Assembly (NCBI RefSeq): GCF_014640195.1
Contig: NZ_BMGM01000001.1
Span: forward strand, 310,001-374,000
Length of the DNA: 64,000 bases
Reading direction: 5' to 3'
DNA from: Psychroflexus planctonicus
GTDB lineage: Bacteria; Bacteroidota; Bacteroidia; Flavobacteriales; Flavobacteriaceae
Shown: positions 52,747-53,723 of the stretch, one piece after another
How positions within the stretch are numbered: the stretch's first letter is position 1
Layout: the number at the start of each line of letters is the position of its first letter
Translations under genes and position numbers: made by a program
Notes under the pieces: model-generated
Told to the model about the DNA's origin: nothing
Databases searched by the model: none
What the model saw: only the letters and a program-made list of their open reading frames with translations

Positions 52747-53007
52747 TTTATTAAAAACTACTTCTGGTTCTTTCATAAAAAACATAAGCGTGCTACCGCA
52801 CGATTGCATCGTGTGGATTATTGAATCAATTTTGAGCCAAAATACTGAAAACCCCCGCTACCGCACGAATCCTTTCGTGTGGTAATATGAATCTGAAAAT
52901 GAATAGCCTAAGACTAACAACCAAAATCTAAATCGCTACCGCACGATTGCATCCCCCCGCTACCGGACGATTGCATCGTGTGGTTTTCTGTTAATAGTTC
53001 AAATTTC
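52747..53007 (+). repeat. REP hairpin cluster, left of the RAYT gene
   Basis: GCTAC followed by CGCACGAT-TGC-ATCGTGTGG stems occurs at 52792-52816, 52857-52882 (stem changed to CGAA...TTCG), 52935-52953 (a half copy) and 52959-52983 (CCGGACGA variant). In the second copy GAT/ATC is replaced by GAA/TTC, so both arms changed together. All copies face the same way, towards the transposase gene's 3' end. Confidence 0.85.
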
Positions 53008-53571
53008 TTAGCCAAAATACTGAAAAACAATAATATTATCTAACAATCCTTTATTTTCTGCATAATCAGCTGCACTACTGTATACATAATCTTCTGGATG
53101 ATAAACTAAACCGGCAGCTACGGGATTCTTATGCACATAACTAATTTTTTCTTGAATTACTTTATTACTCCATAGCTCGATAGGTTTATTATCGTGTCTC
53201 CAAAATTGAAATTTATCTACATTTGAAGACTTACTAGCTGCTTTTTTAAACTGGGCTAATAAAAATTCTTTCCTGCTTTCCCTAGGATTTTCCTGAATTG
53301 CTTTAACAATAGCTTTACTGGTAAAACGTTTAAAATCTCCTAATAAATTTGCTGGGTTTAATCCATCGATGCTTCTAAAAACCAAGTGAACATGATTAGT
53401 CATTATACACCAAGCAAAAATCTCCATTCCTTTGTTCTTTTGGCAGAAATGCAGACTTTCAACAAGTATATCTTTGTATTCATTTCTAGTGAAAACATCA
53501 AGCCATTCTACTACAGCAAAACTCACAAAATATAGACCTTCTGGATTATGAAATTTATAATTCCTGCTCAT
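53008..53571 (-). CDS. REP-associated tyrosine transposase (RAYT, Y1/HUH family)
   Basis: This 187-residue single-strand DNA transposase is related to IS200/IS605. The metal-binding HUH motif is His60 and His62 in MTNHVHLVF, and the catalytic tyrosine is Tyr145 in KISYVHKNPVAAGLV. LNPANLLGDFKRFTSKAIVK and QFWRHDNKPIELWS are typical of RAYTs, and all key residues are intact. It is bounded by REP hairpins in inverted orientation (52792-52983 and 53627-53687), consistent with action on these repeats. It has no IS-type terminal structure, so it is likely a domesticated single-copy gene. Confidence 0.93.
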   Translation of the reverse strand: MSRNYKFHNPEGLYFVSFAVVEWLDVFTRNEYKDILVESLHFCQKNKGMEIFAWCIMTNHVHLVFRSIDGLNPANLLGDFKRFTSKAIVKAIQENPRESRKEFLLAQFKKAASKSSNVDKFQFWRHDNKPIELWSNKVIQEKISYVHKNPVAAGLVYHPEDYVYSSAADYAENKGLLDNIIVFQYFG

Positions 53572-53626
53572 TTCATAAAATTACTTATTTTTTTGAATTA
53601 CAGCAACAAGCAAGTTTAGTCTTTAC

Positions 53627-53687
53627 GCCACACGCGATACAATCGCTCGGCAGCTGAGTTACACACGCGATTTAATCGCACGGTAGC
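53627..53687 (-). repeat. REP hairpins, right of the RAYT gene (inverted)
   Basis: Two copies, CACGCGAT-ACA-ATCGCTCGGCAGC and CACGCGAT-TTA-ATCGCACGGTAGC, are the reverse orientation of the GCTACCG hairpins on the left side. Stem bases differ from the left copies (TGCGAT/ATCGCG against CACGAT/ATCGTG) while the GCTACC/GGTAGC end is kept. Together they bracket the transposase gene. Confidence 0.8.
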
Positions 53688-53723
53688 AGTGGTTAACATC
53701 CAAACCAAGTTATTTCTTTCAAT

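What the first reader, a model, noticed from the sequence alone, without database searches (positions are those of the whole stretch)
52747..53690. RAYT gene bracketed by inverted REP hairpins with covarying stems
The transposase has an intact HUH motif (H60, H62) and catalytic Y145. On the left are GCTACCGCACGAT...ATCGTGTGG hairpins; on the right the same element appears inverted, with different stem bases but the GCTACC/GGTAGC foot kept. Copy 52857-52882 changed both arms together (GAT/ATC to GAA/TTC). This is the layout expected of a RAYT and its substrate repeats, and the paired changes suggest selection for the hairpin. Family knowledge: RAYTs bind REP DNA in other phyla; a Bacteroidota case with such stem diversity is worth describing.
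Basis: partly seen in the sequence, partly recalled or inferred. Interest (0 to 1): 0.7.

Follow-up and report, generated by a model that had tools for sequence, protein, structure and literature searches.

The report
Bacteroidota REPtron with GCTR-footed wobble hairpins
A small gene for a DNA-cutting enzyme sits between the short DNA hairpins it probably acts on; it belongs to a little-described branch of a known family, and near-identical copies in some related bacteria suggest that in this branch the gene and its hairpins can still jump together.

Summary
The observation largely holds. An intact RAYT/TnpA-REP gene (53008-53571, minus strand; H60, H62, Y145) is bracketed by inverted hairpins: three on the left plus a truncated one, two imperfect ones on the right. 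It fits TnpA-REP subclass 2.6 (RAYT group 5), already described in Bacteroidetes with "atypical" hairpins lacking the GT[AG]G guide. I define that hairpin: a C tract, guide GCTR, a 9-bp stem with G.T at pair 3, variable pairs 5-9, loop starting with T. In 77 independent named loci, 74 of 86 motif matches chosen without regard to pairs 5-9 were fully paired there; pair 3 was G.T in 96 of 102 GCYR-footed hairpins. A model finds such hairpins in 82 of 199 family genomes (reversed control 0 of 199); they track the RAYT (37 of 44 versus 27 of 137, training genomes dropped). In four relatives (G123, G249, G127, G094) REP-RAYT-REP units (88-99.9% identical) occur in 2-3 copies, ending mostly about 5 nt outside the feet; G123 also has MITE-like derivatives. 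[quoted passage not shown] this branch apparently does. No activity was tested.

The parts
53008..53571 (-). RAYT / TnpA-REP gene, 187 aa, HUH (H60, H62) and Y145
52792..52816 (+). REP, GCTA + 9-bp stem, GAT subtype, loop TGC
52830..52851 (-). probable remnant of an older RAYT 3' end (encodes FQYFG), cut off by the next C5-REP
   Evidence: 17 nt exact match, E 4e-5; 19 of 22 identical, best of 40 shuffles 17
52852..52882 (+). C5 tract plus REP, GAA subtype, loop TCCT; 52853-52931 is shared at 81% with a dispersed copy on contig C2
52935..52953 (+). truncated REP, cut off by the next C5-REP
52954..52983 (+). C5 tract plus REP nearest to the gene end, one stem mismatch
53630..53654 (-). REP, decayed (2 mismatches), foot GCTG
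53663..53687 (-). REP, imperfect (1 mismatch), foot GCTA, no C tract outside it
52954..53687 (.). proposed REP-RAYT-REP unit, 734 nt (unit in G094: 735 nt)
   Evidence: inference by analogy with duplicated units in relatives

Best explanation
The locus is a REPtron of TnpA-REP subclass 2.6 (RAYT group 5). Shown by sequence: an intact HUH-Y1 protein flanked by inverted hairpins with guide GCTR and a 9-bp stem whose third pair is a G.T wobble; stem type changes with protein distance; in some relatives the REP-RAYT-REP segment is the duplicated unit and short deletion derivatives exist. Inferred mechanism: on single-stranded DNA, for instance at a replication fork, the foot strand folds with a full helix while its complement has an A.C mismatch and the foot on the other side. 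The protein reads GCTR, the wobble and the variable upper stem, nicks through Y145 near the C tract about 5 nt outside the foot, and joins the ends elsewhere, sometimes at existing REPs. In this genome the element looks near the end of its active life: one copy of this clade, imperfect right ends, a few dispersed hairpins.
For: Protein family and catalytic residues; nearest PDB profile hit is E. coli TnpA-REP 4er8, E 3.9e-7; constraint on the protein. Hairpin plan in independent loci: 74 of 86 fully paired, 53 of 57 within 500 nt with the foot outward, 96 of 102 with G.T at pair 3. Model: 82 of 199 genomes, reversed control 0 of 199. Link with the RAYT. Stem distance against RAYT distance rho 0.47, 0 of 1000 permutations. 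Two RAYT clades in the own genome have different hairpins. Duplicated units with ends near the feet.
Against: No activity was measured. In the own genome the unit is single-copy and only 9 hairpins reach E<=1, far from the >100 quoted for classical REPs (abstract of PMC2817692). 20 of 199 genomes have hairpins without a RAYT match by either search, including G120 with 26. The right ends are imperfect and lack a C tract. No base-exact empty site was found. Common descent contributes to the stem-RAYT correlation.
Confidence: 0.72

Rival explanations
1. A domesticated, vertically inherited RAYT that at most copies short REPs; the gene itself does not move, as published for other groups.
For: Single copy of this clade in the own genome; dispersed own copies are hairpins with at most about 79 nt of shared sequence; published view (PMC8049555 and PMC6006769 passages).
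Against: Near-identical REP-to-REP units in G123, G249, G127 and G094. This view may still hold for the window genome itself.
Confidence: 0.2
2. An ordinary IS200/IS605 insertion sequence.
For: Y1 domain; multi-copy near-identical units in some relatives.
Against: Y motif is YVHKNP (Y---NP), not the Y---Q that PMC6006769 gives for class 1; the IS200 model scores 26.6 against a cut-off of 55 bits; hairpins are inverted at the two ends.
Confidence: 0.04
3. The hairpins are transcription terminators or mRNA structures with no link to the protein.
For: They are intergenic in the window and can fold.
Against: Orientation is tied to the RAYT (53 of 57), the conserved part is a 5' unpaired GCTR with a C tract, positions after the stem show no T run, and presence tracks the RAYT.
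Confidence: 0.03

Closest known systems
TnpA-REP subclass 2.6 = RAYT group 5 (PMC6006769)
   Same: Bacteroidota; NHVH and Y-H-NP type motifs, SS tail, HUH-Y spacing near 82; flanked by hairpins without GT[AG]G, copies elsewhere in the genome
   Different: W motif is WR in the window protein, not WQ; here the hairpin has a defined plan (GCTR, pair-3 G.T); units are multi-copy in some relatives. The paper's Table S1 could not be read and may list such hairpins.
E. coli TnpA-REP and its REPs (group 2; PMC8266576)
   Same: HUH-Y1 protein, 5' tetranucleotide guide, inverted REPs around the gene, strand-specific imperfection in the stem
   Different: Guide GCTR in place of GTAG; one G.T wobble in place of a two-base mismatch bulge; shorter stem; few copies per genome
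IS200/IS605 insertion sequences
   Same: HUH-Y1 enzyme, hairpins near the ends, near-identical multi-copy units in some relatives
   Different: Inverted ends, Y---NP motif, C-rich outer ends
REPINs / MITEs
   Same: Pairs of inverted REPs with a short interior in G123 and G019
   Different: The interior derives from the two ends of the RAYT gene

Membership tests
TnpA-REP subclass 2.6 / RAYT group 5 | HUH motif NH[LIV]H and catalytic Tyr | tested here: met
   NHVH, H60/H62, Y145 invariant in 28 and 48 sequences
TnpA-REP subclass 2.6 / RAYT group 5 | Y motif YIH[QN]NP (class 2: Y---NP) | tested here: inconclusive
   YVHKNP in the window: class 2 pattern met, consensus residues differ; most relatives read YIHNNP
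TnpA-REP subclass 2.6 / RAYT group 5 | WQ motif | tested here: not met
   window clade reads WR, the other relatives mostly WQ; a motif consensus in the paper, so membership is claimed as a fit and not as proven
TnpA-REP subclass 2.6 / RAYT group 5 | HUH-Y spacing, median 82 aa, and SS in the tail | tested here: met
   H62 to Y145 is 83 residues; S165 S166 invariant in 28 sequences; values for 2.6 from PMC6006769
TnpA-REP subclass 2.6 / RAYT group 5 | Flanking hairpins without the GT[AG]G guide | tested here: met
   GCTR feet
TnpA-REP subclass 2.6 / RAYT group 5 | Position in the published TnpA-Y1 tree | not tested
Canonical REP (GTAG class) | 5' GT[AG]G next to the hairpin | tested here: not met
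   foot is GCTR
Canonical REP (GTAG class) | High copy number (>100 per genome in PMC2817692 abstract) | tested here: not met
   9 matches at E<=1 in the own genome
REPtron | tnpA-REP gene flanked by inverted REPs | tested here: met
REPtron | Cleavage and joining of the cognate single-stranded REP | not testable with these tools
   needs the protein
IS200/IS605 insertion sequence | Y---Q motif and IS200 model above cut-off | tested here: not met
   Y---NP; 26.6 of 55 bits

The most novel reading that the evidence does not exclude
In Bacteroidota the REPtron is still a transposon: the REP-RAYT-REP segment, bounded by inverted C-tract/GCTR wobble hairpins, moves as a unit and spawns MITEs, and in some hosts such units and hairpins sit among RHS-type toxin-immunity cassettes and may help to shuffle them. 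The near-invariant G.T wobble would be the strand-discrimination mark that takes the place of the E. coli bulge.
Probability: 0.5. Interest if true: 0.78.

Novelty: new variant of a known kind. Interest (0 to 1): 0.6.

Why it matters
RAYTs are discussed as domesticated transposases whose gene no longer moves. A branch in which gene plus hairpins is duplicated with defined ends gives a natural system to ask how REPs spread and how domestication happens. A fixed foot and wobble with a varying upper stem makes RAYT-hairpin specificity directly testable, since many RAYTs with their own flanking stems are now listed and can be swapped in vitro.

Tried and rejected
A strict pattern (GCTACCGNRCGAT...ATCG) found only 3 copies in the genome, all at the locus, which looked like no repeat family until the stem was relaxed. 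Terminator and IS200 readings were rejected (see rivals). Empty sites were sought for the window unit through its DUF4301 neighbour in 60 relatives (15 of the loci inspected for neighbours), for the C2 hairpin in 27 genomes of the genus and for the G123 MITEs in 40 relatives. Shared neighbours were found in the first and third search (in the second only the gene on one side matched), but no base-exact empty site; after the fetched flanks were not aligned further. A general link between REPs and RHS genes was tested by recalled motifs: 0 of 30 REP loci, 1 of 80 named RAYT loci, 3 of 20 hand-picked regions, so it is reported as local only. That the split REP continues as GTGG beyond 53687 was considered and not claimed. 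Covariation on the training alignment is biased by selection for pairing and is not used as evidence. The single protein found no PDB relative at E<=0.001; the profile did. Structure prediction never ran.

Full report
Check of the observation. The minus-strand ORF 53008-53571 encodes 187 aa and matches REP_Tyr_transpos (NF047646, 86.9 bits, cut-off 80) and Y1_Tnp. H60, H62 and Y145 are invariant in alignments of 28 and 48 sequences. Against five relatives pN is 0.09-0.13 while pS is 0.77-1.03, that is, saturated: the protein is under constraint. One of those five, L136, does not read from ATG to the expected end. Left hairpins: 52792-52816, 52857-52882, 52959-52983 and a truncated copy, 52935-52953; right, other strand, imperfect: 53663-53687 and 53630-53654. 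The matches are more than chance. DNA folding favours the foot strand over the complement for the left copies (-7.8 vs -5.6, -9.6 vs -7.8, -6.1 vs -5.0) but hardly for the right ones (-4.2 vs -4.0, -5.2 vs -5.0).

Anatomy of the hairpin. The flanks of relatives found by protein search in 199 family genomes (62 with a match) showed a common plan: GCTR, then 9 bp, mostly S-C-G-C opposite G-T-G-S, so that pair 3 is G.T, then pairs 5-9 that vary, and a 3-4 nt loop. Those elements were picked for pairing, so their covariation is biased. Of 86 matches to GCTRSCGC-N5-N3..5-N5-GTGS, taken without regard to the N5 arms, 74 pair at all five inner positions, 8 at four and 4 at three or fewer. 41 of 77 loci have a fully paired one; within 500 nt, 53 of 57 have the foot pointing away from the gene. 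Conversely, of 316 hairpin readings chosen only for Watson-Crick pairs 4-9, GCTA (55) and GCTG (46) are the commonest feet, and pair 3 is G.T in 96 of 102 with a GCYR foot. In 254 distinct strict elements from all loci then held (training loci included, G.T at pair 3 required), positions -5 to -1 before the foot are 61-78% C, 34% at -6, and the loop starts with T in 248. Around 108 RAYT loci a looser scan (NNTR foot, one mismatch, 400 nt, no random control) found elements on both sides in 46, on one side in 30, on neither in 32.

In the 20 loci whose protein is at least 70% identical to the window's, stems are of two kinds: [AG]CGAT with loop TG[CT] (TAC once) and [AG]CGAA with loop TCCT (TCT once). 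The window has both, so the 52857 copy is a second subtype. In the own genome the strict dispersed copies are of that second kind: C2:125196, C15:233, C15:2950 (loop TACT) and, with a mismatch, C12:247; two weaker matches (E about 0.04) were not classified. The C2 copy shares 79 nt with 52853-52931 at 81%, so more than the hairpin was copied.

Link with the RAYT. A covariance model of 25 flank hairpins from 18 loci matches at E<=0.01 in 82 of 199 genomes; the reversed model matches in 0 of 199 (the tool warns that an empty answer alone shows nothing). Elements occur in 55 of 62 genomes with a match to this RAYT and 27 of 137 without; dropping the 18 training genomes, 37 of 44 versus 27 of 137, p 1.6e-14. 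With the broader profile NF047646 (78 of 199; it also reports weak Y1 matches) the figures are 42 of 60 versus 22 of 121, p 1.6e-11, training dropped. At most 37 candidates per genome were scored, so counts are lower bounds. Of the seven RAYT genomes without an element, G057, G175 and G180 have hairpins with G.T at pair 3 but another foot (GTTA, ACTG, TCTG); G007 has hairpins without G.T at pair 3; G003, G100 and G158 show only partial or broken RAYT matches. Against a strict link: 20 genomes have elements and no RAYT match by either search, among them G120 (26), G018 (11) and G023 (11, one contig); loss of the RAYT is a guess. Stem difference grows with RAYT distance (rho 0.47, 0 of 1000 permutations, 61 of 108 loci that had a strict element); common descent contributes. 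The own genome gives a matched comparison: its second RAYT (C3:280319, 42% identical) has GATA, GAGA and GAGT feet on GCGCGGAAT or TCGCGGATT stems, the window RAYT GCTA on CCGCACGAW.

Mobility. In G123 (one contig) a 718-730 nt segment occurs three times at 99.2-99.9% identity, and a second RAYT's 665-nt segment twice at 99.85%. In G249, same genus, the first segment also occurs three times, at a locus with shared neighbours; copies differ by 0.1-0.6% between the two genomes, while the longest shared host stretch is 92% identical over 5.7 kb. G094, whose RAYT is the closest full-length match found (85%), has two units at 96%, and G127 two at 88%. In 26 pairwise comparisons the left end lies 4-8 nt outside the foot (5-6 in 22); the right end lies 3-6 nt outside in 18, 7-11 in 7, and has no foot in range in 1 (comparisons share copies and are not independent). 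A 243-253 nt element made of two RAYT ends plus hairpins occurs in at least five copies in G123; G019 has two hairpin pairs 211 nt apart around a RAYT 5' fragment. Of nine multi-hit genomes looked at, four (G123, G249, G127, G094) show REP-to-REP units; G036 and G010 show longer duplications, G138 similarity over about the gene only, G157 two different clades, and in G069 several RAYT pieces stop at contig ends. I saw no target duplication by eye in the flanks; no systematic test was made. In the window two C5-REP starts (52852, 52954) abut truncated older pieces, an RAYT 3' end and a REP, and G249 has a cut REP next to a unit. Repeated insertion at existing units is my inference.

What is known. 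PMC6006769 (passages and section 13 read) places subclass 2.6 / group 5 mostly in Bacteroidetes, with atypical hairpins that lack GT[AG]G, were found by manual inspection, have weaker structure, and have copies elsewhere in the genome; [quoted passage not shown] PMC8049555 (passages) calls RAYTs single-copy and vertically inherited. PMC8266576 (passages) reports that in E. coli the GTAG guide and the bulge matter and that only the REP strand is processed. PMC3733652 (one passage) reports CGTC repeats in Bacteroidetes among other phyla. Seven paper searches listed no title on a GCTR hairpin or on unit mobility in this branch, but none used such letters as a term and supplements could not be read, so it may be in print. 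The host family is inferred as Flavobacteriaceae: contigs of G044, G084 and G138, same family as the window's genome, equal named Flavobacteriaceae, Algibacter or Tamlana records in length and RAYT sequence. The link of DUF6443 with RHS proteins is recalled.

Noticed in passing
window 5160, 58950, 59206, 60266: A second GCTA-footed hairpin family (TCCGAAGTT-TGC-AACTTCGGA, one TGCGAAGTT variant) without wobble at pair 3; the exact form has 3 copies in the genome, all in this window. A similar stem flanks a different RAYT clade in G050; the own genome has a decayed RAYT at C7:161254, perhaps its former partner.
   Followed up: partly
L086, L087 (G120 C3 and C6): 16 GCTR hairpins of nine stem kinds in 15 kb, and 4 more on another contig, among small ORFs next to an RHS-like ORF (recalled motifs; no Pfam hit), in a genome without a RAYT match.
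   Followed up: partly
L258, L277, L103 (G249, G123): REPtron copies sit directly after a gene with a DUF6443 domain and between variable small ORFs; in G123 two MITEs flank a stretch with RHS-like motifs, and in G254 the same flanking genes lie close together without it.
   Followed up: partly
L213 (Aggregatibacter segnis HK_296): A RAYT of this Bacteroidota type, about 50% identical to the window's, next to a metK-like gene in a gammaproteobacterial record, without a detectable GCTR hairpin: transfer or assembly error.
   Followed up: partly
L091-L096 (G023): Eleven elements in a one-contig genome with no RAYT match; in six stretches read, one hairpin type (GCTG GCGCGAGCY) dominates: orphan REPs.
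   Followed up: partly
L238, L240, L244, L246, L247, L249, L251, L256: Other RAYT clades keep a 9-bp stem with G.T at pair 3 but show other feet (GATA, ACTG, TCTG, TTTA, GTTA), roughly NNTR: a possible guide-specificity series.
   Followed up: partly
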